Of a stretch of DNA of 64,000 nucleotides, positions 3 to 61,989 are shown piece after piece (positions within the stretch are counted from its first letter, which is position 1; every line of letters begins with the position of its first letter). Under the pieces are notes generated by a model. The model saw only the letters and a list, made by a program, of their open reading frames with translations. It had not been told where the DNA came from and ran no database searches. The position numbers and the translations under genes were made by a program. The DNA comes from Membranipora membranacea (Eukaryota > Bryozoa > Gymnolaemata > Cheilostomatida > Membraniporidae): contig OU612065.1 of assembly GCA_914767715.1 (NCBI GenBank), positions 8,804,001-8,868,000 on the forward strand, in the 5' to 3' direction.

Positions 3-3000
3 ACGGGTTTAGCCGTCAAAGAGATTTATAGGGAAATACTGGCTGAGATGGAAGCTGGTGACTCCTCTAGGCTGGCAGAGGTGAGAGCCTTATCATCTCA
101 GATGCACCCATCTATCTTCCAATAAAGCTGTGATTGACGACTCTCTAAGATCTATTTGATCGACTTAGATACAGTGATCTCTGATATGTGATACATGGTA
201 CCTTTGTGTTATGTGAACTCAAACCCATCCAATGTCTCAGCTGTTTGATTCATGAAAATATCATTGGTAATCTGAATATACCTGATGTAATCGTGCAATG
301 TTGATAATTACATAAACCAAATTGTGGAAAACAAAACTTGCCGCAGCATTGTTGTCCGTCAACCGTCAACAGTCTTTTTGTATACATCATTCGTTCTTAA
401 AACTTCTAATGATGAATATTTGCCTATTGATAGATTCACGGCCTTACCTCAGGGCTAAAAGCCTTCTCGACAGAGAAAGCCGCAGAGCATATAGAGATAT
501 GTCGGAGAGCTTGCGGCGGACACGGATACAGCCATGCTAGTGGGATACCTAAAATATATCAGAGGAGTGTGCCAGGATGTACGTACGAGGGCGAGAACAC
601 TGTCATGTACCTTCAGTGTGCCAGGTGTGTTCTAAGTATTTGTTACAAGGCAATGTGATTTTGACATTGACTGTCTTCACTTTACAGGATATATCATCTA
701 TCTGAATTTACTTTACAAGCGAAGCAGACAGCAATTCATACATAACCCTTGAAGCGGTATGGTTTCTGATTCCAAGTGGTCTGCATTCCCAATATGTTCC
801 ATGGATATATCCAGGATGATACTATTCTTTCTATTTTAGATCTTTGGTAAAGTTCTTAACAATGGCTCAGTCCGGTCAAGAAGTACCTCAGACTGTGAAT
901 TTTTTGAGAGAAGATACTACTGTCCCACAACACCTTGCGACAGCTTCCACCTTCAACAGTCTTCTTCTGAGACAAGCCGTCCGCCTCAATTGTTCAAGGT
1001 AAACACTGTAGCCACAGTGAGCAGATTTGCAAAAATCTGTGAGAAGTGCTAGGTACCCTTTATTTGGTGTTATTTAGAAAAAATGATATAATCAAATGTT
1101 GGATGACTGTGGCGGAGGTTAAATTTTGTTATTAAGTTAGTGTTCTCCTTTCGGGGATTTTACTCTGTGATTGCCGCTGATATTTTCAGGCTGCTGAAGA
1201 CATCTGCTACTAAATTACAGACATTAACTCAGAGTATGGGTCTTGAGGATGCATGGAACCAATCATCCCTAGAATTAGTAGAGGTAGCTAAGGTAAGATA
1301 TTACCTGAGTTACTGCAAAAATCCTGCACTGGACATAATAATATGTATTCTCTATCACTGGCTATGGTTGAATGCTGGTTAGTCATGAGGGACAATGATG
1401 CATAAAGAGTGATAGGTGGAGATCAAACTGTATTAGATCGAAGCAGTATCTATGTGAGGCCATTAAAGGCAGTGCATCATGGTTATATCCTTACTGCCGC
1501 TCATGCTGTGAAAGAGCTTCTACATAGTTCACTGAGACTGCCTATTACTTGTCATATGAATTGTGTTCTCATGTGAAAATAAATGACAACTCCCTCTGAA
1601 TCTTTATTAACATTTTGTCAAATTATCAGTGGCAGGTCTAGGTCAGGTCATATTACTTAATGTTAGCATTGATTGCTCATATTTAATACCGGTGGCATTT
1701 TTATGTTCTTTCAGGCTTTTTCATTCTACATGACAGTAGACTTATTTACGGATGCACTAACTAAACGGAAATGGGAGGTGACTGCTAAGACAGCCATGTC
1801 TCACTTATGTGAATTCTATACAGTCAATGGTATCTTGAATGAATCCGGCACATATCTGCAGGTATGTGTGTTGGCAATATAATGTCTCAATGGTAAACGC
1901 GAGTAGGTATGGGAGGGAGGGAGGGAGGGAGGGAGGTATGCACTGGGACATGGTGCTCTGGCCTGCTGGTTTGTAAGACAATACCTGTATGTTCCACCCG
2001 GGGATACAGCAACAAGTCAAGGCTTCAGTCTATGTGGCGGGACCCTTGTTTTTTAAATTTTTTAATGTCTCATTTTTATATCCTTTATCCTTCAAGAAAC
2101 AAAATTTACATTGTTTTAAATCTGGCTAAATAGTGCTTTAGTAAGCAAGTTGCTGTGTGTTGTCTCTATTAGTTTCATTAATATTTGAATTTTGAACTCT
2201 CAATGATAACTTACAGGAATTAAAATAAATGCTTCTCTGTCAACCGATATTGTTAGAAAAAATAGCCCAGGTTAGTAGATTAAATTCTATTGGGTATACA
2301 TACTGACTCTCGTGATCTCACTGGGCATGTAGATCACTGATAAACTAGGCTATCATTACCACAAAGCAGGTGTCGTAAGGCTAAGTATGCATCCTGCGTG
2401 ACTTGAATTTGCGCATGTGCAAGAACAATGAGTTTAGTTTGGGTTCTGATTGCAACTTTGGAAAGGGGAAATGGGATATCCCCTGCATAAACTGTCAATC
2501 AAAATCAGCTAATAATGACAAGAGAGGATAACTATTGATAACAAATCCGCACGCTTTGGGAAGTATGTCACCAGAGCAGGTAGCCAATCAGATGGCTTCG
2601 GAATTCCGAGGCTCAATTTTGCAGAGATCAGCTCATGCCCAGAGCTGAGCATGCGCAGAATGTTGGGTATATAACCTGCCCTTTATATAATGTTTTTTTT
2701 TTGCAAACCCCAATAAGACAAAAAAAATCCATTTTTTGGTGCATCTGTCATTATATTTGAGGTAGGTATGACTGCTTAAAAATATTTTATCTTAATCCTG
2801 TAATCCTACTAATTGGTAATCAAAATTTTACTTTGAACCGTAAATCCCAGGTCAGATAAAATTATCACAATCATGTCATTTAACATGGTGACTCCATGAA
2901 ATGGTGCTATGTGCTCTGGTATCTTTACACCAAGCCAAAACTGGCCATTGCCGGACAAGTATGAGGACAGTCAAGTGCTACGGCATCACTTGTCTCATAA

Positions 3001-4600
3001 TAATAAGTGCAAGTACACCAATTAGGGACACACTCAGCACCAGACACCTTGGGGCACCCTGGAGCAGTGTCACAAGGATTTTTCTCACATGCATCATGCT
3101 CTTTTGTGTGCAAAAAGCAAGTTTTGCAAAACTGGTCCAAAGCTGGAGGTAAAATTAGACAATTAAACGGGCAGTACGGCAGCGCTTCTCCATTCAGCTC
3201 ATAGTGGTAGTTCCCGCAAGCGAAACAGTTGTCAGTAATACACTCAGCTCCCTTGGGCGCTGCAGGACAGCCATCTTTAGGGCAGGGATCAGAATCTGGA
3301 CAGTCCTTCATCAATTCTGTCACATCACACGGCCCACAGAGCTTTTTCAAGGTTATGCCATCAATACGTGTCACCCACGCTGAAATAGGGAAACATTGTT
3401 ATTTGAATGAACTGAAATGATGGTTTGTTTTGCATCTTAAAATCAATTTAATACTACCCAAAGACCAAAGCATGTTATAGTCAAGCAGTTACTTGTGTCT
3501 GATTTGCATGGTTAAAAATTCAGTGCTCTACTGGGCATGAATTTTGGATGGTGGAAAGAGTGCCTTCCATAAGGGAAGGTAACCCTCATTCTCTGTATTA
3601 CGATATCACAGTCCCCCGGATGTGCTTGTTTCTTGTATTGCACATCCGGGAGACTGTGACATCATAATGCAGAGAATGAGAGTTACCTTCCCTATTTTTA
3701 AGGCACTCTTTCTACCATCAATAATTCCTACCATGTAGAGCGTTGGATTTTTATACCATGCAAATTGCACATAACGTTATATAAGTAACTGACTGACTAT
3801 AACATGCTTTGGTTTATGGGTATGAATATATCATTCAATGAGGTAAGGGTTGTTGTTGTAGCTATTTCTCTTATGCTTAAAAGAAAACTTACCAATGATA
3901 ACTAAGGGAAAAATCAGTTGTTTGTTGCTGCCTTCCATGTTCACAAGACTCCGACAAATGCTCAATTGTCATGTGGGATCCAGTATCTGCATTGCATTAT
4001 CTAAAATATGATGTTTGAAACAGCTGTGACCGGTGCAAAATTGTCAAATATTGTAGAAATTACTCTAGCTTTTATGTGATCTTCAAATGCAGACGCCAGT
4101 GACCACATTACAAGATGACAGGTATACCTGATGTCTTATAACTATAGTGCTAGACCTTTTTAGATGGGTATGTTGACACCGGAGCAGATTTCAATTCTCG
4201 AATCACAGAGAATACAGCTTATGTCTGTTTTAAGACCTAATGCTGTAGCTTTGGTGGATGGATTTGATTACCCAGACAGACTGCTGAATAGCTGCCTTGG
4301 ACGATATGATGGTCAAGTTTATGACGCACTGTATGAGTATGCCAAAAATTCCTCTCTCAACAAAGAACAGGTATAGAACAGTTTTAGGAGTGCCATTGCC
4401 CTTGGTCCAAACAGTCACATACCAGATTTGTTGATTCGGATAAATCCTTGAAACTTTTAAAAATGCTAGGTCAGCATAACTGAGTTATGATACTACAATG
4501 ATTAATTATGTAATGCCATTGTAAATCTATTTTACAGGTTCATCCATCCTTCCATAAATATGTGAAACCAATGCGTGATGCACTCAAGGCCAAGCTGTGA
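3..4600 (+). CDS. ACOX1-like: Peroxisomal acyl-CoA oxidase, C-terminal half (5' end lies left of the window)
   Basis: Flavoenzyme that carries out the first, H2O2-producing step of peroxisomal fatty-acid beta-oxidation. Seven coding exons were traced: 3-80, 434-624, 840-998, 1190-1292, 1715-1861, 4164-4370, 4538-4600. All borders are GT-AG and phases close, giving the last 315 residues; the family is about 660 residues long. Visible signatures are [19 protein letters not shown], then [13 protein letters not shown], then [15 protein letters not shown], whose YEGEN carries the catalytic Glu known in this family. The C-terminal domain contains [35 protein letters not shown] and [10 protein letters not shown], and ends in AKL-stop, a PTS1-type peroxisome signal. 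The 2.3 kb intron 1862-4163 contains another gene on the opposite strand. A possible poly(A) signal AATAAA is at 4949. ACOX1 versus another ACOX paralogue is not resolved. Confidence 0.95.
1909..1936. repeat. GGGA simple repeat
   Basis: Short (GGGA)n microsatellite of about six units in an intron of the acyl-CoA oxidase gene. The short open frames over it are low-complexity artefacts. Confidence 0.8.
2925..3938 (-). CDS. Secreted cysteine-rich protein CRP1, nested in an acyl-CoA oxidase intron
   Basis: Two coding exons on the minus strand: 3938-3893 (ATG through ..LVII plus one base) and 3379-2925, joined in phase, encoding 166 residues. The N-terminus has a short hydrophobic stretch ([12 protein letters not shown]) that can act as a signal peptide, so the protein is probably exported. 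The mature part is rich in Cys and Pro and contains two related modules. Module A starts at [20 protein letters not shown] and ends CPFNC. Module B starts at [20 protein letters not shown] and ends CPHTC. Both share the pattern GCP, then AEC, two closely spaced Cys, Y-Y, and a final CPxxC. I do not recognise the family; a protease inhibitor, matrix or antimicrobial role would be a guess. The gene lies entirely inside an acyl-CoA oxidase intron, antisense to it, and its own intron carries a foldback element. CRP2 is a paralogue about 3 kb away. Confidence 0.8.
3451..3820. mobile_element. About 370-bp foldback (hairpin) MITE in the CRP1 intron
   Basis: Nearly the whole element folds on itself. 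The left side reads CCCAAAGACCAAAGCATG and the right side is its reverse complement with few changes. An inner arm pair runs from 3549 to about 3720, containing GGGAAGGTAAC, CATTCTCTG and CACAGTC..CCGGATGTGC, around a loop near 3628-3642. The paralogous CRP2 intron reads CAATT-TA-TGAATA uninterrupted near 6490. The filled site has TA on both sides (3449-3450 and 3821-3822), which fits a TA target duplication of Tc1/mariner type. The left end has about six extra bases outside the matching arm. There is no coding capacity, so it is non-autonomous. Confidence 0.8.
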
Positions 4601-5924: not shown

Positions 5925-6630
5925 TTACACGAAGCCAAAACTGGCCATTGCCGGACAAGTATGAGGACAATCAAGTGCTACAGCGCCGAGTGTCTCATAA
6001 TAATACGTGCAAGTACACCAATTAGGAACACACTCAGCAACAGACATCTTGGGGCACCCTGGAGCAGTGTCACAAGGATTATTCTCACATGCATCATGCT
6101 CTTTTGTGTGCAAAAAACAAGATTTGCAAAACTTGTCCAAAGCTGGGGGTAAAATTAGACAATTAAACGGGCAGTATGTCAGAGCTCCTCCATTCAGCTC
6201 ATAGTGGTAGTTCCCGCAAGCGAAACAGTTGTCAGTAATACACTCAGCTCCCTCTGGTGCTGCAGGACAGCCATCTTTGGGGCAGGGATCAGAATCAGGA
6301 CAGTCCTTCATCACTTCTGTGGCATCACATGGCCCACAGAGATTTTCGAAGTTCACGCCATCAATACATGCCACACACACTGAAATCAGGATATATTAGA
6401 ACTGACATGATAGTTTGCTTTAATTGTTACCATGGACTTGATCATTTACTGGATCCAACCCCAAATTAGTTTTGCATTTCAAAGTCAATTTATGAATATA
6501 TCATTCTATAAGGAAAAAGGATTTTTTTACAAAGCATGAAGTTGTAGCGTTTTTACCCAAGCTCAAGCTAAAAAGAAAACTTACCAATGATAACTAAGGG
6601 AAAAATTAGTTGATCATAGCTGCCTGTCAT
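5925..6630 (-). CDS. Secreted cysteine-rich protein CRP2, paralogue of CRP1
   Basis: Two coding exons, 6630-6585 and 6379-5925, with the same intron position and phase as CRP1 and also 166 residues. The leader is hydrophobic ([14 protein letters not shown]) and carries two cysteines absent from CRP1. The mature region keeps every cysteine of the two internal modules (module [21 protein letters not shown]; module B: ..[15 protein letters not shown]). Differences are mostly substitutions, and both frames are intact over 166 codons although the adjacent oxidase copy has decayed. This suggests that CRP coding function has been kept under selection. The function is unknown; export is inferred from the leader. 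Confidence 0.8.
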
Positions 6631-14841: not shown

Positions 14842-17683
14842 TGATAACCTCCAATATTTAGAACCTGGCTTCAGTATGAATCAGGATAGTCTTTAATCTG
14901 TAGCCGAAATGATGTCACCAAGTATTAGGGGTGGTACAAAGTGCCTGCTTTATTACCAGCGGCTAATAACCATTGATCACTAATATCAATGAACTGAGGG
15001 CTGAGAGAGAGTTCATTACTATTATGGATCATACATCAAAGGAACATGCCGACACAACAGGGAAATTGTTACTCTATTGTTGTGATTATGTAAATATACA
15101 CCAATGATTGGATAAGATATCTGCTACCCCAGAGCTTGTTGGGAGCTTATCAGCGCTCTTACACCAAAAATAAAACAGCAGATTTTTGTGTGAAACTACG
15201 CTCAAATAACCAAAACATGATCATAACATGACCTTATAATTTTAATAACTTACCAACCATATAATGATACTCCTGTCCCTGGAATCATGTCTTGGTTATG
15301 AACGTGATTTTGACCTGCTCTGTTTATATATCCAAGTCAACAATAAAACTGTATAAAAATTCAGTTTTAAAAGTAAAATAGTGCAGGAAATGCAATCTGT
15401 AACCAAGTTGTGAGAGCATTTGCCTGCTATATTATTATGGTCACGCTTTGGTCGAGGAATAAATACTCTGTTGACAAAGCATGAACTTGTAAATGCTATC
15501 ATGTTGGATTTTTTCCTGCTTTTAACGCTTTACTGGTAATGGATTTAATGCAGGAAATCCTCCGATCTAACAATCATTATAGGAGACAAAAGTGGATAAT
15601 CTAACTGTTTGTGACCCTGATGTCTCTCCAAGAAAAATGTGTGGAAGTTGAGCTGCATCATTTAGCGTGAGGTATTTGATAGAGCCACTCTGCACTAAGC
15701 TAACAAGGATTATTCCTTTTTAATCCCGGTCAATCTACCAAATCCATCACAGAGCTTCTGGAAAATATTGTACTCAAGAAAAACAGCAGTATGATAAAAC
15801 CTATTGCTTGCTAATTATATCACAGGATCTGATCAGTGGAATCGGTCAATTATTGTAACAGGTTACATCAGAAGACGTTTTTAGATTTACAGTTGCTTGG
15901 CTTTAACTCAACACCACAACATGTGATTATAGTGATAAATCGATTCCGATACCGATTTCCTCTGCCTTAATTCTTAGAAGACAATGGCCATCTTCATACA
16001 TTCAATATCACCTTCTTTCACTGGAATATCAGGTATTTTAGTTTCCTGCAAAATTTTAGCGTGTACAATATTACGCTCAATGATGCACTAATTTACGGAA
16101 CAAAAGAAACGAAACAAAAGGCTTACACATAATTTTGGTTGCAAAAATCCCAGTATGATGAACCAGCAGATAAGAAAAGATTTTCCAGCTAGAGCAGGCC
16201 ATAATGCAAATTAAACAGTTTAGTTCATTGATTTAGGCACTAGGCACTACAATATTCTTCTATTGGACCAGGGAGATTGGACAAACAAATATCACTGATA
16301 TTTTAAGAACCATTACTATGGTTACCAAGTAGCTCTGTATTTTATAATTCATTTTATCCTATCCTCCTAAATTTAATGGGCAACTTGATGGGCAAATAAA
16401 ACAGATATACAATATACAAATATTTATATATTATAGATGATGCATCACTACCTGTTAATTTGAGTGAGCAAAAAGCGCTTGCAGATAAGTAAAGACTGGG
16501 AAGTCATCATAATTTAATTTGCTAACACCAATGAACTTCATTGCTTACACTAACTCCAATTTAGGTTTGAAGACGTTACCCTTATACTGTATGATTAAGA
16601 TGAAGAATTTTTTATTGTTTGTGTGGTGTGAAACAAGGGTAGATAAGTTTGTTACGAGTGAAGTAGACACAGAACATATCAGTTATTGGACTTATTTCTG
16701 CTCATCAGCAGGAGATATTTGCAGTTATGCAAATCTCAAAAGCTGACACAGATCTGTTTAGCGGGACTTATGGTCCACAGTTAACAAATTGGTACTTTTA
16801 TCTTTTACTCTTTGCTTTTATGCTCCTACAAAAATTCCAAGTGGCAAATATGGAATGAGTGTGTTGAGTATCAAGCCGAGCCCTTTTATATCGTATCAAT
16901 TTTAATTGGCGGATCAACCATAATAAGTCACTGGGACACAAGAAATATTTATATTCATTAAACTGATAATTCGTGTAAAAGGAACTTCTGAACAGGGAGT
17001 TTGGTCCCCAACTCCCTGTTCTGAAGCAAGAGTAACAATTTTAGAGCGTCAGGAGTTGTCTTCCAGATTAGTGTATTCAGAAAACTCCCACCAGTCACTT
17101 TAGCCAACTCAGTTATATGGTTTTGCATGGCAGAAATTTCAGGCTTGTCCGTACCTACTATTTACATTACCAGACCACCACTATTTACAGATTGTAGTGA
17201 ATTTTCAGTCCTTGTTTATACTTCTCATCCCATTACCCCTTGCCTCTTCATACTTCTTCTGTTTGTGACACAACATTGTTTAATAACAATACATATATCT
17301 TTCGAAACCAAATATAAATAAATGATAGGAAATTTGGAGAGGTTGAAAAGTTTCAAACCTGAGACCAATCGGCCACACAAAAGTGAGCTTGCCCAGACAG
17401 GTAGGACTTCCAAAAGTTCGAAGTAAGTTGCTCTCTTAACCACATCATTACCAAATTAGAACATGATTAACATAAAAATGTGGAACCGATTCAGCTAGTC
17501 CAGTTAAAATTATCTCTACTTATTATAGTATAGAACATAAACCAAGCATTTCTACATTCTCAGTTGTGCAAACACATTCCACTGTGGTACATTAAGCAAC
17601 ATGCTACCATGAATGAGATTATATTGAAAGTCTAAGGGTCTTAATGAGAGATCGAGTATATTTTGAAGAGGCAGTGTATATTG
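14842..17683. other. Intergenic region between the PRDM14-like and IMMP2L genes
   Basis: About 2.8 kb of AT-rich DNA upstream of the PRDM14-like start codon, so it should hold that gene's promoter and distal elements. I see no convincing coding segment. The only structured element noted is the small hairpin at 16992-17019. Confidence 0.5.
16987..17024. repeat. 28-bp hairpin flanked by 5-bp direct repeats
   Basis: The core 16992-17019 has arms ACAGGGAGTT and AACTCCCTGT around a loop of about eight bases. It is bordered by TCTGA on the left (16987-16991) and TCTGA on the right (17020-17024). This is the layout of a very small inserted inverted repeat with a target-site duplication. Confidence 0.6.
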
Positions 17684-32036: not shown

Positions 32037-35000
32037 TTATCTTTCCACTTGTACAAGGGCTGGGAAGGTTCTCATTCTTAGCCTCTCAACTTCAGCACGT
32101 AATACAGCCACTTCATTAGCCTGAGCCTTAGCCAGATCGACAAGCTTCCTTCTCTGTACTATCTCCTGGTATCGTCTCTCTCTGGTCGTCTCAAGGTTCT
32201 TATCAGCTACAATATAACATAGAATACTTGTATCAGACTGGTGACTGCTGTCAATCAATGTGTTCCTGTTTGGCACAATCCCTATGAATTGCTAACTGCT
32301 GTATTTCCTTATGCAATCAATTTGTAGACCGGTTTAAATTCTGATGTTCTTAAAATTGTTAGTAGTTCTGATTGATTACAATGGTAGGAATTATTTCACA
32401 AGACAATGGAATAAGTTCACATCAATACACATTATAAGTAATTAGAGAACGGTTTAGTAGCCTGTCTTGACAAGCTTGACAGGCTAAACGGTTTAGGTAA
32501 TGGGGTTTTAGGAAATGCAACATTAGGGATTTAAATCATATCGATTGAATCGGGAATCATACTATGGAATTGAAGAAAGAATAGGAATCACGATTAGCGT
32601 TACTACCATTACAATGGAAACACTAGGACTAGCAGCCATCTTAATAATTTGAGCAGAAGGTATTGATATATGAGGATAGATCCATCTGCCTTTCACTGCG
32701 ATCTAAATTAATTGGTGAGCAGCGGAGCAGGAGTAGGGAGGACACTCCACAGATTAGTTTTAGCGCTCCAACTCTGCCCGTGGCGCTTGTATTGGTATTC
32801 CACAATCAGCGGTTGATAGTGGATTGCCACTACCAGCATCACGGCAGAGTTTGTGCACTTAAACTAACCACAGATAAGTCATGGGAGGGTCAGTAGGAAA
32901 ATACTTACGCAGGCTGTTGGCTAAATAGAAATATTGAGTCAGGGTTTTATGCATAGTAACTATAATGGCCAAACAACTTTCTTGTTGCCATTATCAAAAT
33001 TTGTAATGGATATTTATATATCAACTATTGATATTTTTCCCTTCACGTTAGATAATGATAGTGTTGATAAATAGTCATTCGGCTTGAAAGATTCCTTAAT
33101 AAGAGATGAGTTAGCAATTTTTCAGTGTGATGAGGGCCATGCATGGATTGAAAATGTTTTTTGTATAGGAAAATTCCATTTCCTTACCTCAATACACGCT
33201 GAAAATAGATTTCCATTATGAATAACTTATTAATAAAATAGTGGAGACAGAATGAAAATTGTTCAACATGCAATTAATAATCGGCACGTTTCACCCAAAG
33301 ACAGTAACCTATATCATCATAAGAAGTAAAAGTACAGGTTTGATAGCTGCAGCAGAACTATGTACTGTTACCACAATTTATATATCCTGTGTAGTATACA
33401 GCTTTGAAGTCATGATCAATATTGATCTCTCATACGCGCTCACAGTGAACCACAGAAGTGTCACAGGAGTGTCACAGGAGCGTCACAGGAGCATCACAGG
33501 GTCACAGAATCATACGTAAATGCACTTACTGCCAGCCTCATGAATGTGCTGCCGCTCGTTTACGCCAACATTGAGGTCCTCAATCTCAGCGAGTAAAACT
33601 CTATTCTCGACTTCTCTATCTTTGATGTTGTGTTTCAGCTCCCCTAATATTTTCTTCTTGATGTCAACATTAGCTTCATGATGCTACAAATTAAGGTGTA
33701 CAGCATAAAACTCTAAATTCTGACACCACAGTTTAGATAAAGTTGAAATATGGTACAGTGGTACAGTCATGGTTTGGTTTTGATAGCTCATGTTCTTTTT
33801 CTGTGATATGTTGTGAAGTTTTACACCTTTCAGTACAATTTTCATCTGAGCTATTTTGTTTGTTCACTAATAAACTTTTTATTTGGTAGACACTATCATC
33901 CTGGTAGCCCAATAAATACCAGTAGAGCTGCACAATCATCAATCTGACTAAGCATGACTTTACCCTTTTCTGCATGAGAATGGTCTGCTCGAGGATTGAG
34001 ACTTCCTGAGCGACTTTAGCATCGTGATCCTCCTGGTTGAGATAAGACTGAATCTCACGGGTAACTTTCATCATGTTGATTGTTCTCATCTTATTCTTGA
34101 GGTCTTCTATCTTCATCAGATTTTTCTTGTGCTCCCATTCGAGCTGAATAATACCCTTCCTAAACTCCTTACTCTCCATCATACTAGCTATCTTACTCTC
34201 TCCAAGCGCCTGCAAATCAGGTAATTAAGTCTTGTAGCCAAAAAATCTCGAATCAGGACCATTTTAAAGTGGCGACTCTAATCCTAAACATATGTCGAGA
34301 CATATACAGTCCCCAGTTAATTAATAGATGAACAAAAGCATTATAGACGGTTGATGTTTTCGATTTGTCTGTTAGGGATTTTTTCTAAATGTTATCATCA
34401 GGTTATTTATGAGAAGAAAGCAAACCTTGATCTTTCCATTGAGATCCTCGACCACACTTCTGTGTATGAGTACGCTATCCTTGTATTCATGTATAAAGGA
34501 ACCAGCATCCAGCTCAACCTGTCCTTGCTTCATCAGCAGCTGAACTTGTAGATTCAGATGGAAGCGTTGCATCATGTCTTTGAGTCTACAAAAGTCAAGA
34601 CTTATTCATTTAAATATCATCAATCAAAATTATGATATTGACCATCAACTAATTATTTCAAGCATAAATAACCAGTATATAGCATATACCATGTGCAAGT
34701 GAAAAACTAGATGAGTGGTTATCCTCTCAATGTCAAAGAGAGGACAAATCTTATAAACAGAGTGTATATTACGTATCATGCAGCTAGAAACTATTTTTTC
34801 GTATTGGTAATCCTCTAGGTAATACTGTTTTCGTCTTTCTCATCTGTGATACGGTAATTTCTTGTAAATCATACCTGCTTAGTTCCTGCCCCAGGTCATC
34901 GATTTCTTCCGCAAGTTTATAATCCTCATCTTGTCTTTTCTGCTGGAAGGACATCATCTCCGCCATTACTAATGCCTTCTGCCTGACCTGTTAAAAACAC

Positions 35001-54100: not shown

Positions 54101-57100
54101 TACTGTTTATTGCTCATGCACTTTGTGCTGTTTACTACTTTGCTTTTAGGGCAGTACTTTCAGGGAGTAATTTGTGATATCATGTCTAGGCAATAAAGCA
54201 CAACAATGAACCTATGCTCTCTCATGTTTTTTTTGGAACAATATATGTAAAGTGTGAAAGGTATCAACCAAACTCCAAAGGTTTGTGGGTCAATGAATCA
54301 GAATTTTCCCCATGGGATATGCAAAAGGTGGGCCATAAAATCAGATTATTATTGTGATAGAAGCTTTGTGCAACACAGAGCGAATGATTCAACCCATCAC
54401 ATCACATAGCTGGGCTGTCAGCACAGCAAGGGCCAAAGTCTCAGACAAACAAACTTTTGATGAGTGATTTGATAATACCACAGAGTAAGGATATCCTTAC
54501 TCTGTGATAATACATAATATACTGGGTCATCTCTCATCAGGCTTGGGTTACCGAACTTCACATGTCCCCTACACTTGAGAGAAGTACTGGTGCTTCACCA
54601 ATATATGATTAGCGTATTTTCATTCCCTAACACTGCTGCGCATCTGATTATAGAAATTCTAATACCATGAAATTAAGCTACCACTTGCAATACAGTATTT
54701 ACGTCCCATTGACTATAGACATTTTAAATATAGGTATGCACATAACTTGAAGAGCCTCCGGGGTACCGTGATAACATCAAACTGACTAAATTACCTCACA
54801 AGATAGTGCAGTCGCTGGTGCTCGATACACATGACTTAGTCAAGAAGCTGTTCCTTACCAACCAAGACATAACTGTGTTAGATAAATGAGGCGTTTAATG
54901 AGACTCTCTGACAATGCCAAAAACATTAAAATTTAGTGGTAAAAAATAATTTTTCTCAGTAACCTGCATCCATTGATTGCTTTGAAGGGACTACATGTCC
55001 TTTTTATCAGTGAGAGGATCTTAATAAAGTAAAGATGATTAAGAAGAACAGCTAAATTAATTGATGAGTGCCAAAAATATTATGGATCAACAACTCGTGA
55101 TCGCGGAGTTTTTCATCATCATCAACACAGTGTGAAACAGAACGCTTTGTGTTGTCGGAATGATGAAGGTAGGACGTGCAGACTACAGATCCATTTTGTC
55201 ATGTCGCTGAGTGACTGACATGATTTGTAGTTACCACAGATAGGAATATGATGAATATGAGTTAATAACTATAAAAAAGATGATATATATTTCCGTTTTA
55301 TGAAGTCACGTACCATCCATCTAAAGTACATAATTATTAATATTGATGAGGAGGGAGACTTTTTGCAGATGGATGGAGTTTCAGACACATGACCTTGATT
55401 TGAAGGATAATTTTTTTCATAAAATTCCAACGGAGTTTGAGTCCAGCCTGCTTGAATCGGGCCATACAAGGCCTTGCCAGGCAGGAGCTTATCGAACGTT
55501 ACCTTTATGCGATATCAAGAGTGACCCCACATTTAGTACCAAGCCTATCTAATCCAGTCTTGACTTACCTTGCCAGAATTCAGACTGTACGGGCGACATG
55601 TTGATTTGGAATGTTTCTACACCCATATCAGACATACTGTTGAATGTAAGAGCTTTTGCTGATATATCACATTTCCTCTCATCTAAGGTAACTGTGTAAT
55701 TAGCTAAGGAGACGGAGCTGTTCACATCACTTTTCCTGTTAAACCAAACCACAGGCATGAACATCAGAGAATGAAGCAAATTATTGGAATTTGTGATTGC
55801 AATACTTTGTGTCCTGCTATTTGTTGTTCACTAAAGTGTCTTTGGTATGGCATATAATTTTTTTTTAAATCATCAATCACAACCAAACTTCTTGACACTG
55901 AGGATTATAATAAAAATAGATTGTTGACTCATAAACAGGATAAATAGTTCCTCCACTTGTGCCTGCTTTATCATCGCAGAGTGAGAAGACCTAAAACTGA
56001 CTACAAAATATGACGATACTAACTCTAGGGCCTAGGCAAACACCTATTAATCAGTTTACCTGAAGCTAGCTTCCACCGTCAAACATTTTTTTTCCACTTT
56101 GATATATTCTGCCATCTTTTCTTGCACCTGATAAAATTAGATTATGTAATATTATCCCATGGATCACTGCAATCAATCATAATTGATAAGTTTCAAGAAA
56201 CTGCAGAATTCTGTATGTCTGAAAATTTAAAGGAACAAAAGCCGACTGGCCTACTTACATCATCAGAAAAAAATATACCCTAGAGTAGCCTGAGCCCCCT
56301 CCCCCAGACTCTCGCCCCCCATCCCCGTCCGCAGCTCCCTCGGCTGAGGTTGAAAATTCAGCATTTTTAATAAATAGTGAGCGATTGCAGTTTGCAGATA
56401 TTGGAGTGAGTGATAACAGTTCAGAATATTTCTAGGGAGCAAGGATGTTGAGAGCTCATTACTATATCTAGGACCAACAAAACGCAAACCCTAAATAGTG
56501 GTCAACTTGCGCTGAGCACAAACATCTTCATTCTAACAAGATACACATACACACTTTTTTATTTTGGCAGGCAATACCATCCCGATAAAGAGATTCATAA
56601 TAAGTGCCATGGGAATATGGGAAAGATCACCCCCTCAAAACCAGAGGCCTGGTAAGCCAACAATAACACTACAACAATACACTGTATGCTAAAGCTATAC
56701 TCGAGATACTTCTGTGTGTCAATTTGCGTGTGGCTTGTGAATAATGATCCTCTGTTATTGGAACACCATAAAGTGGTTGCAAAACTTTTAATATCAATTT
56801 GATTTCCCATCAATGACCGCTGTAATTGTAGTTTTAGTGTATATATCAGACAGTGAATTCAATTTGAAACATGAATCAACAAGGGATGAATCACCCTCCA
56901 CCAGCATCTTCATGTTTACTTCCATTAGTTATCAAGATTTAAAGCACAAGTGGTTTTAGATGGTAAACAGTTTATATATTAGGCAACTCATTGAAAATCG
57001 GTTAAATGTTGGGACGTAATTATAACCCTGACGAGTGTTTACGTATTAGTTGTATACAGTCATAGAAGTATCTAAGCTAATCTGAAACCACCCCCTTGTT

Positions 57101-58903
57101 TCCTAAGGAATCTCCAAATGCAATGACAGCGTTGGATATAATACACAAAATAATGAGAGGTTTTTGAAACACTACCACTACCCCCCCCCCCCCCTTCCTC
57201 GTCCTCTTGATAGAAAAGATATAATGATAGTATCACTTTTGATGAACTTTGGATATCGCCGGATGTAATGCCTCAGACAGTCTAACGGCCACTATCTATG
57301 TGATTGCTCATGGTAAAATCATCTGAGTTATCCTTATTAGCAATAGTATCAATTATAATCTAAATAACAGGGACATAGTAGTTGAGTAGGGGTGTGAAAG
57401 TTAGTGCGTGGAAAATAATATCATAATAATGGTTACTGTAAAGTCCATGAGTGGTGCTTTGCTCAGGTTAAATGATGTGACATTATCACAGAGTAAGGGT
57501 ATATCCTTACTCTGTGACGTTATTGAATAAGCAAGTTTAATTAATCACATGGGTGTCCCTTTTTCTGATTCCTTACAAAATAATGTTCCCTCTTTCTGAT
57601 TCCTTGCATATAATCATTTTCCAGATCAGATGTTTATACTATATTCTGATGTACATACTTTCTGAACAGCAAGAACAGAACAGAAGAAAGTTGGGAAACC
57701 TACTATCGCTGGGCGGGACAGAAAGGATGCGATAAGTAGCTCGTGTATCTAAGTTCAGATAGCAGCTGTTTGGTGCGATATTTTGTAGAACAAGTGAGTT
57801 TCCTCGATGAGGCGCAACCAGGGACAGTAGGCTAAACCTGTCAACTCAGGTGACAATTTGCATGATATAATAATATGTCAACTTTTGATCCTGGGCCAGG
57901 TTGCCATGTGTACCTGAATTAATCGCCAATAAAGCCTTTTCAGGCAGTCCCACACAAATACCTTATAGCTATTTCTTGCTACTATACAAGATCCTTGGCA
58001 AGAATATGCCATTAGGATGGGTGTTACATTCTGAGACATGTAAATGGTTTAGGGACAAATAAACTAAGGCATACCTAATTGGAATCCAACCAACTAAGAG
58101 ACACATTTTTATTGAACTTGGTGGCAATGAAAGCTAACAGGATGTGACTACATGGAAGCCAACCCTTGCTAAAAAAATTTTGTGGTCTAGGAGGAGCTCA
58201 AAAATGCACCATATGCCGGTGGCAAGAATTGTTCTCTTTACCCATCGACCGAACCCCGCACTAATGAAACCTATGAGGCCAGGCCTCCAACCTGATCCAG
58301 GTAGAGTAGAACAAGCGCAAAGAGATGTTGACCCAGAGTCAAAGCAGTTTAGACCTATCACGACACCTACCTAGATGATGTATTCAAATCCACAAAACAT
58401 ATAGATAAACATAAATACTATGGTTTAAAGTTACACCTACCTCTGATTGAAGGTTCTTTAGTTCAGAAGAAGATATGACGTCTGGTATCGCATGAGACAG
58501 AATTAATTCTCCAGAGAATACCAGCTTGAGATCTTGGCCTAAATTAAGGAAAAAAGGGTATACTTTAAAAACACAATCATGTAACACTGTGACAAATTCA
58601 ATTGAGGAGTTAGCGGAGAGGCGGCAGGCCACAAGCTAAGAAAGAGCAGCACGGATCAAGGGTGAACCTAGAGTATGATATGTACCAGCAAAAAAAAGGG
58701 TTAATGTTGACAATAAACTGAATATTGTTGTTATATGTGGCTATAAAAGCTCATTTTTATGCTTTGATTTAAATTGGAGTACCGTAAGCTCACAATAATA
58801 CAAATTTATATCAAATATGGTTACCTGTAACTCGGGAGGCCAACATTATAGTTGAGATTATCAGATAAATCCATGAACAAGTAGCTAATCCTTTCTGCGC
58901 CAT
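51133..58903 (-). CDS. Unrecognised single-pass type I membrane protein
   Basis: Eight coding exons on the minus strand close in phase to 357 residues: 58903-58825, 58538-58441, 56127-56060, 55735-55569, 53365-53172, 52095-51966, 51693-51548, 51324-51133. Residues 1-26 look like a signal peptide (..WIYLIISTIMLASRVTG). The ectodomain of about 110 residues has only two cysteines and three N-glycosylation sequons (NSS, NYT, NMS). A transmembrane segment follows at about 142-165 (ILIFVGCGVIIVIILVTCII), then a cytoplasmic tail of about 190 residues. The tail is rich in Ser and His/Lys and has tyrosines in possible adaptor-binding contexts (LYQPY, SVYDVEE, NVYERLESINYAQ). I know no family with this layout; an adhesion or signalling receptor is a guess. 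Several introns carry foldback or palindromic insertions. Confidence 0.7.
53591..54070 (+). CDS. 159-codon open frame inside a membrane-protein intron, doubtful
   Basis: ATG to TAA with no stop over 480 bp, followed by AATAAA at about 54192. It lies on the opposite strand inside an intron (53366-55568) of the membrane-protein gene. Composition is protein-like (for example KTYYKHAVDIWRHFESKHT) but no domain, signal peptide or homologue is recognisable. It could be a nested intronless gene, an old retrocopy fragment, or chance. Confidence 0.25.
   Translation: MMKQSHIICRPWIQQMQENVDVQDDVDAQYTGCLELTWPCSLHWTAWPGKGLTSSIVYSNFGRSCQGKPHCSIFHFKMMYAHINSLANSLAVTFQVSLQGEAKEKTYYKHAVDIWRHFESKHTIIMSVLSSKHLPAPIHIYQFNEMAVSKINSGRLACH
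54472..54513. mobile_element. 28-bp micro-palindrome, family 1, copy 1, with 7-bp duplication
   Basis: The core 54479-54506 is a perfect palindrome, CACAGAGTAAGGAT followed directly by ATCCTTACTCTGTG. Flanks are ATAATAC on the left (54472-54478) and ATAATAC on the right (54507-54513). It lies in an intron of the membrane-protein gene. Confidence 0.85.
57480..57523. mobile_element. 30-bp micro-palindrome, family 1, copy 2, with 7-bp duplication
   Basis: The core 57487-57516 has CACAGAGTAAGG and CCTTACTCTGTG around GTATAT. Flanks are ACATTAT (57480-57486) and ACGTTAT (57517-57523), a 7-bp duplication with one difference. It lies in another intron of the same gene as copy 1. Confidence 0.85.
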
Positions 58904-59604
58904 GTCGGCTTTAAGCTTAGAGCTCTATTCAGTGAATGAGCTATGGAGTCTTGTAGTGCTCAGATCAGTGATGATATTGATGATAGGTTTGATGGATTTA
59001 GATAGGCGCAATGATTTATCATCACTGTGTGGCGAATTAGCTGTATGGTATCACAGAGTAAGGATATATATATCCTTACTCTGTGATGGTATCGTTATCA
59101 TGGCATTCAGCCAAGCATAAACTTAGAGTGTCTGTAACTGATGACAGGTGGGGTAGCTGTTGGATGGCAGGGCTATAAAGTGGCAATGACGCAGAGTAAA
59201 GCTGTCATAAGTCGCCACACATCAGGCTGTTTGGCTGTTTTAAATTAGGTTCAAATCCTCATTGTGACAATAAGTCACATTATTGCACTCACAAAAACAA
59301 AGGAATGAAATCATCGCTGAACTCAAGCTTGTAAAAAAATAGGAGTTCCGACCTGATATATTTGAATGTTTTTCTTATACAGCTTTCACCTGTCATTGCC
59401 TGGCCGCTCACAAACAGACGCTGCAAACCTTCCTCCCGACATTATTATTTGAATAAAAGAAAATTGCGAGATGGATAACTCAAAATTGAAGGTTATCAAT
59501 TTACAAGTTGAAAGACGAATACTGTGACTTATATAGCCAAGAAGCCGTCATTAGGGTTGGCCAACCCTATTTCAGAATCAGATTCATAAAAAATTGTTCA
59601 TATT
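58904..59604. other. Upstream region of the membrane-protein gene
   Basis: About 700 bp between the membrane-protein ATG and the 2-kb foldback element. It should contain the promoter and 5' untranslated region, and holds family-1 micro-palindrome copy 3 about 150 bp upstream of the ATG. No gene is seen. Confidence 0.5.
59045..59092. mobile_element. 34-bp micro-palindrome, family 1, copy 3, with 7-bp duplication
   Basis: The core 59052-59085 is a perfect palindrome with arms CACAGAGTAAGG and CCTTACTCTGTG around the symmetric ATATATATAT. Flanks are ATGGTAT (59045-59051) and ATGGTAT (59086-59092), an exact 7-bp duplication. It sits in the presumed promoter or 5' UTR of the membrane-protein gene. 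Confidence 0.85.
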
Positions 59605-59806
59605 ATAGGCCAGAAGCAGCTATAGCATAAGTTGTTATGGCACGGACAATATTTGATGGCAGGATATTGATCACGTTTTATACTTCATTGGTGTATGTTC
59701 TGTAAAATTCACTGGGTGTACCCAGTTGTAGTGGTCATATTTAGAAATTAAAAGGTGTTTTGTTTTGGCATTATATGTGTGGGGAAATAACTCCTATTCT
59801 GTGTAG

Positions 59807-59854
59807 TCTAACCAGAGACTATAGATATATATATATCTATAGTCTCTGGTCTAA
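59807..59854. mobile_element. 38-bp micro-palindrome, family 2, inserted in the left arm of the foldback element
   Basis: The core 59812-59849 is perfect, with arms CCAGAGACTATAGATATAT and the reverse complement. TCTAA flanks it on both sides (59807-59811 and 59850-59854). The equivalent position in the right arm (about 61393) has no insert, so the empty-site state is visible in the same window. Confidence 0.85.
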
Positions 59855-60389
59855 CTAATCTAATCATCGGGGAATTCCAGGTTGAAATTGCATTGTGGGA
59901 TTTGTTGACATGGCAATCAATTCACGAAGTAAACTTGTAGAGAAGTCTGCTCGTATCAGACCAGCACAAATTGAAAAATTATGTCAAACTTCTTATGGGA
60001 CTAGTATGATATTGTATGGTCTTAAGACCACTGTCTTGGGGCAATTACCAACAACATTTTTGATGTTTCAATTCCCTCTTATGTCATTTTTCGGCTGGAT
60101 ATATTTTGCATAACACATGAGCAAAGAGTTCAATGAGTGCCTCACTGTTCAGCAAAGAAACCCAACTGTCAGAGTCTGAAAAACTTAGATATGCCAGCTT
60201 CGCATACTTTCCTAACATGCTAATGACATGATATGGGGATATGCGGTAGCGCTGTCTCTCACCAACCACATCATGCAATGATAAAACATATACAATGTAG
60301 AACCCAGGACTGTAGTCTTGACTTGTGTCAACTGCATCAAACTCTTGACTCCCCACTAATCACATATCGATGGTGTAAATATTTGGGAT

Positions 60390-61235: not shown

Positions 61236-61989
61236 ATAAAGATCTGACATTTTACTTATTGAAAATTTTAAATTTGTCCTGATCTAACACGAGCAGACTT
61301 CTGCAAGTTTACTTGGTAAATAAATTGGCAAGTCAACAAAATCCCCACAATGCAGTTTCAACCTGGAATTCCCTGAAGATTAAATTAGTAATATTACGCA
61401 GAATAGGAGTTATGTCCCCACACATATAATGCAAAAACAAAATACCTTTTAATTTCTAAATATGACCACTAAAACTGGGTACACCCGGTGAATTTTACAG
61501 AAGAAACATCAATGAAGTATAATATGCCATCAGTTTTCTGTCATCAAAAATTGTCCGTGCCATTTTTTATAGAGCAGTTACAGCTAGGCTGCTTCTGGCC
61601 TATTAGTCCAGCAATGGAATAGAGACGCAATTAAGATTTATGTGTAATGTCATGATATAAGTGTTGAGCAATGATTGATGATAATTTGTTACATAACCGA
61701 TTTAAACCACAGCAATTCTTCTCAAGATAAGTATTCTGTTGAGAAGACTCATAGCACAGTACGAAAGAAGTTTAAGTACGCCCTTAATTCATTCATGGCC
61801 TTCAGCTTCATTTTGCCTACTTTCTTACTTCGACAGCTGTGGGTTATGGCATATCAAGTTTTTTTAAATGTTGATTAATCTTCCTTTATTTCCAATTATT
61901 GTCATAGAAAATGTTTCATCTTTATCTAATATTTCAAGACAAAAATACCTTTCAACCATTGAAGTGATGAATGAAACAAAAAATGTGTC

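What the first reader, a model, noticed from the sequence alone, without database searches (positions are those of the whole stretch)
54472..59092. Three copies of a 28-34 bp palindromic insertion, each with a 7-bp target-site duplication
Copies at 54479-54506, 57487-57516 and 59052-59085 share 12-bp arms (CACAGAGTAAGG/CCTTACTCTGTG) and differ only in a central AT spacer of 4-10 bases. Flanks are ATAATAC/ATAATAC, ACATTAT/ACGTTAT and ATGGTAT/ATGGTAT. Identical length of direct repeats around a shared core at unrelated sites is the hallmark of transposase-made insertions. At 28-34 bp they consist of nothing but two fused terminal repeats, far below the size of described MITEs. They may arise from larger elements that lost their interior, or a transposase may move circle-junction-like units. 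All three lie in or just upstream of one gene.
Basis: seen in the sequence. Interest (0 to 1): 0.88.

Follow-up and report, generated by a model that had tools for sequence, protein, structure and literature searches.

The report
Palindromic scars of departed transposons
The three tiny palindromes look like healed wounds left where a transposon cut itself out, keeping up to about 17 bases of each end, and the same genome carries hundreds more of them.

Summary
The genome (339 Mb, unnamed) holds 709 such palindromes. Their duplication is 7 bp: exact at 16 of 24 checked sites, none exact at 6 or 8 bp. The same first 17 bases begin a non-autonomous transposon, CACAGAGTAAGGATATA|CAGAGG (copies seen 0.5-1.7 kb, 7-bp duplications; 924 ends genome-wide). 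Of 100 palindrome arms, 99 stop following that end by base 17 and one at 18. The commonest form (30 bp, 20 of 50 listed) is what two 17-nt tails pairing through TATA tips would give; the 34-bp copy equals two untrimmed tails. This is the published layout of Drosophila P-element donor junctions. A second sequence of the same design lies 0.7 kb away (510 copies); a diverged duplicate of its flanks lacks it. Best reading: end-joining scars of a P-superfamily-like transposon (Galileo/1360 type). The mechanism is known; a natural genome-wide record, in numbers comparable to intact copies, did not show in my limited literature searches. No autonomous partner was found.

The parts
54472..54513 (.). 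Family A scar 1: TSD ATAATAC, 28-bp palindrome 54479-54506 (spacer ATAT), TSD ATAATAC
   Evidence: fits two tails joined through ATAT, one base trimmed each
57480..57523 (.). Family A scar 2: TSD ACATTAT, 30-bp palindrome 57487-57516 (spacer GTATAT, one base off the modal ATATAT), TSD ACGTTAT
59045..59092 (.). Family A scar 3: TSD ATGGTAT, 34-bp palindrome 59052-59085 (spacer ATATATATAT), TSD ATGGTAT; equals two complete 17-nt ends joined blunt
59806..59855 (.). Family B scar: TSD GTCTAAC, 36-bp palindrome 59813-59848 CAGAGACTATAGATATATATATATCTATAGTCTCTG, TSD GTCTAAC
   Evidence: 510 palindromes with these 12-bp arms genome-wide, control 0
61388..61394 (-). Site without the palindrome in a diverged inverted duplicate of the family B flanks: one 7-mer (ATATTAC, 4 of 7 bases as GTCTAAC); alignment gap 43 = 36 + 7
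16986..17025 (.). Family C candidate scar: TSD TTCTGAA, 26-bp CAGGGAGTTTGGTCCCCAACTCCCTG, TSD TTCTGAA
   Evidence: similar ends with 7-bp repeats in L090, L012, L082

Best explanation
Each palindrome is the healed donor site of a cut-and-paste transposon. A transposon with ends CACAGAGTAAGGATATACAGAGGGGACAC inserted at an ATANTAT-like site and made a 7-bp duplication. A P-type transposase later cut it out, nicking one strand at the transposon end and the other 17 bases inside, so each flank kept a 17-nt single-stranded tail ending in ...GATATA. The self-complementary tips paired (TATA, ATAT, TA or AT) or met blunt, sometimes after trimming or added bases, and were filled in and sealed. What remains is TSD + up to 17 nt + up to 17 nt + TSD. 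Shown: shared ends, shared TSD length and similar targets, the product ladder, the limit at 17-18, one site without the insert in a paralog (family B). Inferred: that a P-superfamily enzyme did the cutting, and the repair chemistry.
For: (1) 709 palindromes, control 0; 7-bp TSD exact in 16 of 24 sites, at most one mismatch in 20 of 24, 0 of 24 exact at 6 or 8 bp; swapped flanks average 0.13 exact. (2) Full copies share the end and the TSD length: of 8 two-ended copies inspected, 7 have an exact 7-bp TSD and 1 has one mismatch. 474+450 ends with up to 2 mismatches, control 0. (3) Of 50 listed spacers, 20 are ATATAT, the predicted TATA-paired product; 38 of 50 need no inserted base when the four end variants are allowed, 35 of 50 with the main variant and 17 nt alone. 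Of 100 arms, 61 follow the end to base 17, 1 to base 18, 0 further, though the pattern allowed up to 27 per side. (4) A trimmed, asymmetric junction with exact TSD, L082, and junctions with inserted bases. (5) Published P{wa} junctions have the same layout: TSD, 17-nt tails joined by AT or TA or with insertions (PMC2895639, passages). A review names the 17-nt stagger among the features that distinguish P transposition (PMC7776569, passages). (6) P-superfamily TSDs: Galileo 7 bp GTANTAC (PMC4168063, passages); 1360 7 bp GTTNAAC (PMC3276498, passages). (7) 134 PF21787 matches in this genome, one in a 762-aa open frame that also matches GTP-binding and HTH domains; two resident P elements start CATAGA, with 8-bp TSDs.
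Against: No transposase was found inside an element with these ends: none of 38 fetched PF21787 loci (30 of about 3.4 kb, 5 of 8 kb, 3 of 6 kb; some overlap) holds CACAGAGTAAGG, and by eye none of the ends listed (the first hundred or so of each) brackets a PF21787 hit; the nearest lie about 10 kb away on C8. The 17-nt figure is partly degenerate: the end runs ATATA then C and spacers are TA-rich, so the upper limit is firm but 16 versus 17 is not independently resolved. The two resident P elements whose ends I could define have 8-bp, not 7-bp, TSDs. End variants ATAAGC and ATAAAC make up over half of the ends listed (my count by eye), yet only 4 of 50 scars fit them best. No site was seen with the full element in one copy and the scar in another. 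8 of 24 TSDs are not exact. The family B site without insert has a 7-mer differing at 3 of 7 bases, so it is a paralog, not the ancestral allele. Family B lengths are less clean than A's.
Confidence: 0.83

Rival explanations
1. Micro-MITEs: the ~30-bp palindrome is itself moved by the transposase and spreads as a unit.
For: 20 of 24 checked copies have their own 7-bp duplication with at most one mismatch, one sequence is 40% of listed copies (20 of 50), and palindromes are about as many as, or more than, intact copies.
Against: Spacers vary as end-joining products do, with inserted and trimmed forms; the commonest form is predicted by 17-nt tails; the Drosophila P end is described as a 31-bp inverted repeat, longer than these arms; a second sequence shows the same design.
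Confidence: 0.07
2. Internal deletion derivatives: abortive gap repair or slippage removed the interior of elements still in place, with no link to the 17-nt cut.
For: Foldback-like elements with long inverted repeats are prone to hairpin deletion (recalled); copies of different internal length exist (526-1683 bp).
Against: Breakpoints would scatter along the long inverted repeat; 0 of 100 arms pass base 18 (50 of 709 palindromes).
Confidence: 0.06
3. Excision scars, but of another superfamily (for example a hAT-like enzyme) that leaves long ends behind.
For: CA..TG and CAGRG-like ends also resemble hAT (recalled); no autonomous partner identified.
Against: hobo, a hAT, has 8-bp TSDs and hAT footprints lack long transposon ends (recalled); TSD length and target resemble Galileo and 1360.
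Confidence: 0.08
4. Functional palindromes (binding sites, hairpin RNAs or terminators) with chance flanking repeats.
For: Perfect inverted repeats can bind dimeric proteins (recalled).
Against: 7-bp TSDs with 0 of 24 exact at 6 or 8 bp, identity with transposon ends, and a duplicate without the palindrome for family B.
Confidence: 0.01

Closest known systems
P-element excision junctions, Drosophila melanogaster P{wa} (PMC2895639, passages seen)
   Same: Duplicated target on both sides, up to 17 nt of each end, joined through AT or TA microhomology or with inserted bases.
   Different: Those were laboratory events with an 8-bp TSD; here hundreds stand in one genome assembly, with 7-bp TSDs and a four-base TATA tip.
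Galileo, P superfamily (PMC4168063, PMC2775673, PMC3573991, passages seen)
   Same: 7-bp TSD with palindromic consensus GTANTAC (here ATANTAT); long foldback-like inverted repeats; many copies without transposase.
   Different: End sequences not compared; transposase not shown here. Term look-ups: 'excision' occurs once in each of the three papers and 'footprint' not at all in PMC3573991, the only one asked for it.
1360, P superfamily (PMC3276498, passages seen)
   Same: 7-bp TSD; family B's GTCTAAC fits the reported motif GTTNAAC at all but one position.
   Different: No sequence relation tested.

Membership tests
P-superfamily transposon (Galileo/1360 type) | 7-bp TSD with palindromic target GTANTAC or GTTNAAC | tested here: met
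   7 bp, consensus ATANTAT; literature. The outer G/C of the published motif is mostly A/T here.
P-superfamily transposon (Galileo/1360 type) | Transposase with P-type RNaseH plus GTP-binding insertion inside the element | tested here: inconclusive
   Such transposases exist in the genome, but none of 38 fetched loci has these ends; the search of long elements was partial.
P-superfamily transposon (Galileo/1360 type) | Donor sites retain up to 17 nt of each end | tested here: met
   99 of 100 arms end at or before base 17, the other at 18; 50 of 709 palindromes examined; TA-repeat degeneracy noted.
P-superfamily transposon (Galileo/1360 type) | Terminal inverted repeats resembling those of resident P elements | tested here: inconclusive
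   CACAGAG here versus CATAGAG and CATAGAC in L091 and L092; a short resemblance of 7 bases only.
hAT | 8-bp TSD | tested here: not met
   0 of 24 exact at 8 bp
MITE (the 28-34 bp units as elements) | Fixed internal sequence copied with the element | tested here: not met
   21 different spacers in 50 listed copies, though one form makes up 40%.

The most novel reading that the evidence does not exclude
P-type transposons carry a built-in resealing signal: the end is written so that the tail left after the 17-nt cut finishes in a self-complementary tip, letting the host close the donor site with little loss. Family A ends have GATATA at bases 12-17; family B scars suggest the same (no full family B element was seen) though the rest differs; the Drosophila P tail ends ...CATA with a TA tip. 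Genomes would then keep a countable fossil record of departures.
Probability: 0.18. Interest if true: 0.78.

Novelty: new variant of a known kind. Interest (0 to 1): 0.62.

Why it matters
Excision of DNA transposons is usually hard to see in assemblies. Here departures appear to leave a recognisable mark of about 26-40 bp with its target duplication, so past excisions, repair choices (paired tips, blunt, filler) and re-insertion into older scars could be counted genome-wide. It also suggests that the odd 17-nt staggered cut, known from Drosophila biochemistry, holds in a 7-bp-TSD lineage of another genome.

Tried and rejected
Looked for the autonomous element: PF21787 loci (30 of 134 matches fetched at about 3.4 kb; five at 8 kb; three at 6 kb) gave two P elements with 8-bp TSDs but none with CACAGAG ends (also up to 3 substitutions in a 16-base end, 30 loci). 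The check for single arms in P loci written into skipped all those loci by a length filter and tested nothing; my notebook entry that cites it is wrong, and replace it. The 1.7, 1.1 and 1.4 kb copies have no stop-free stretch over 74 aa. A test of retained length by overhang size alone rises only slightly after 15 because of the TA repeat, so I relied on the upper limit. Literature: listings (20 of 27 listed; 20 of 36) show no title on natural genome-wide P-type scars, and one look-up in PMC3212995 (passages) found 'footprint' and 'excision' absent; searches failed. This is not a full search. Not answered: copies of the 59637-59980 segment elsewhere and full family B elements.

Family B lengths over the 50 places listed, counted by me from the coordinates: 25 x1, 26 x2, 28 x8, 30 x11, 31 x8, 32 x8, 33 x2, 35 x1, 36 x3, 38 x2, and 40, 43, 48, 52 x1 each. 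The 31-bp class shows family B is less clean than A.

On checking I lowered the best explanation from 0.85 to 0.83 and the novel case from 0.20 to 0.18, raised the deletion rival from 0.05 to 0.06, and moved the TIR-resemblance row from met to inconclusive, because one cited check had not run and the resemblance is seven bases.

Full report
What is in the sequence. The three palindromes and their 7-bp repeats are as described. A scan of the window for short palindromes with an exact flanking repeat of 6-10 bp finds four with 7 bp, one with 10, and none with 6, 8 or 9; random sequence gives 0.02 with 7 bp and 0.035 with 6 bp per window.

Genome-wide. The window lies in an unnamed 339-Mb, 18-contig genome. 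The family A arm pair with 0-30 bases between occurs 709 times; the reversed pattern 0 times. I checked the flanks of 21 sites (the first 21 of the 50 listed) plus the 3 in the window: 7-bp repeats exact in 16 of 24, at most one mismatch in 20 of 24; exact 6- or 8-bp repeats in 0 of 24; flanks swapped between sites average 0.13 exact, largest 3. Target consensus ATANTAT, palindromic around the middle base.

The parent. A pattern built to avoid most palindromes (742 + 666 matches, control 16 + 6) found complete transposons whose first bases are the palindrome arm: CACAGAGTAAGGATATACAGAGGGGACAC.... Eight two-ended copies inspected are 526-1683 bp with long inverted repeats; 7 of 8 have an exact 7-bp TSD, the eighth reads ATTAAAT/ATGAAAT. 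One-ended or diverged matches among the 30 loci were left out of that count. Counting ends with up to two mismatches gives 474 + 450, control 0, so at most about 460 two-ended copies of that quality against 709 palindromes with perfect arms. An AGAGAGG variant of the end occurs 143 times, control 0 (it overlaps the former count).

Why scars. If the transposase leaves 17-nt tails, family A tails are CACAGAGTAAGGATATA. Pairing TATA tips gives 30 bp with spacer ATATAT, the commonest form (20 of 50). Pairing ATAT after one base is lost gives 28 bp (5 of 50), TA gives 32 (4 of 50), AT gives 26 (3 of 50), no pairing gives 34 (1 of 50, the window copy). The other 17 of 50 carry point changes, other end variants or inserted bases. 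Over 100 arms the retained length is 12:4, 13:4, 14:11, 15:2, 16:17, 17:61, 18:1, none longer. The single 18 is the window copy with spacer GTATAT, probably a point change. The upper limit is the strong part; because the end is TA-rich just before base 18, the exact value 17 rather than 16 is inference backed by P-element biochemistry. L082 keeps an exact 7-bp TSD around a trimmed, asymmetric junction.

Other families. 510 palindromes with family B arms exist, control 0. The window contains a diverged inverted duplicate of the family B flanks lacking the palindrome; the alignment gap is 43 bases, 36 plus one 7-mer, and the single 7-mer there (ATATTAC) differs from GTCTAAC at 3 of 7 bases. A consensus-free scan of about 331 kb of held sequence (overlapping loci included, many chosen for family A) gave flanking repeats of 7 bp in 22 cases, 5 bp in 19 (mostly the same sites read one base outwards), 9 bp in 2 (same sites shifted), 8 bp in 1, 10 bp in 1 and 6 bp in 0. 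New among them are 7-bp cases with CA..TG ends in L059, L078 and L090 and the 8-bp case with CATAGGC ends in L040. One search shows two further CAGGGAG cases in L012 and L082.

What it works like, and membership. The layout matches published P-element donor junctions, and the 17-nt stagger is described as distinguishing P transposition from other characterised cut-and-paste elements. Galileo and 1360, both P superfamily, make 7-bp TSDs. P-type transposases abound in this genome. Membership stays unproven because no transposase was found between CACAGAG ends; the claim that it works like a P element is stronger than the claim that it is one.

Against. The missing autonomous copy; the TA degeneracy; the excess of ATATA-type scars although ATAAG and ATAAA ends are common among listed intact copies; the 8-bp TSDs of the two resident P elements with defined ends; and the absence of a site caught both full and scarred. 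All papers were seen as passages or listings only, none in full.

Noticed in passing
L066 about 1480-1540 and L067 about 1500-1530: Nested case: a palindrome sits inside the ATATAT centre of an older scar (L066; L067 looks similar), suggesting that scars become new target sites.
   Followed up: partly
L087 129-2215: Two elements in direct succession separated by one shared ATATTAT, as if the second inserted at the first one's duplication.
   Followed up: partly
window 32458-32486: Palindrome TAGCCTGTC..GACAGGCTA with an exact 10-bp flanking repeat AACGGTTTAG; a different kind of insertion or footprint.
   Followed up: no
L072, L073, L074: Three near-identical copies within about 51 kb on C1 share one mutated palindrome (right arm CTTAGTCTGCG or CTTAGTCTACG), so that scar seems to predate a local duplication.
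   Followed up: partly
window 3446-3831: Large imperfect inverted repeat around 3572-3693 (54-bp arms, 91%) with further paired arms outside it, perhaps a foldback element.
   Followed up: no
window 2925-3398 and 5925-6395, minus strand: Two very similar cysteine-rich open frames, probably a tandem gene pair; no Pfam match for the one searched, 2925-3398.
   Followed up: no
L093 2641-4926: Uninterrupted 762-aa frame matching P-transposase RNaseH, GTP-binding and HTH domains; ends of its element not found.
   Followed up: partly
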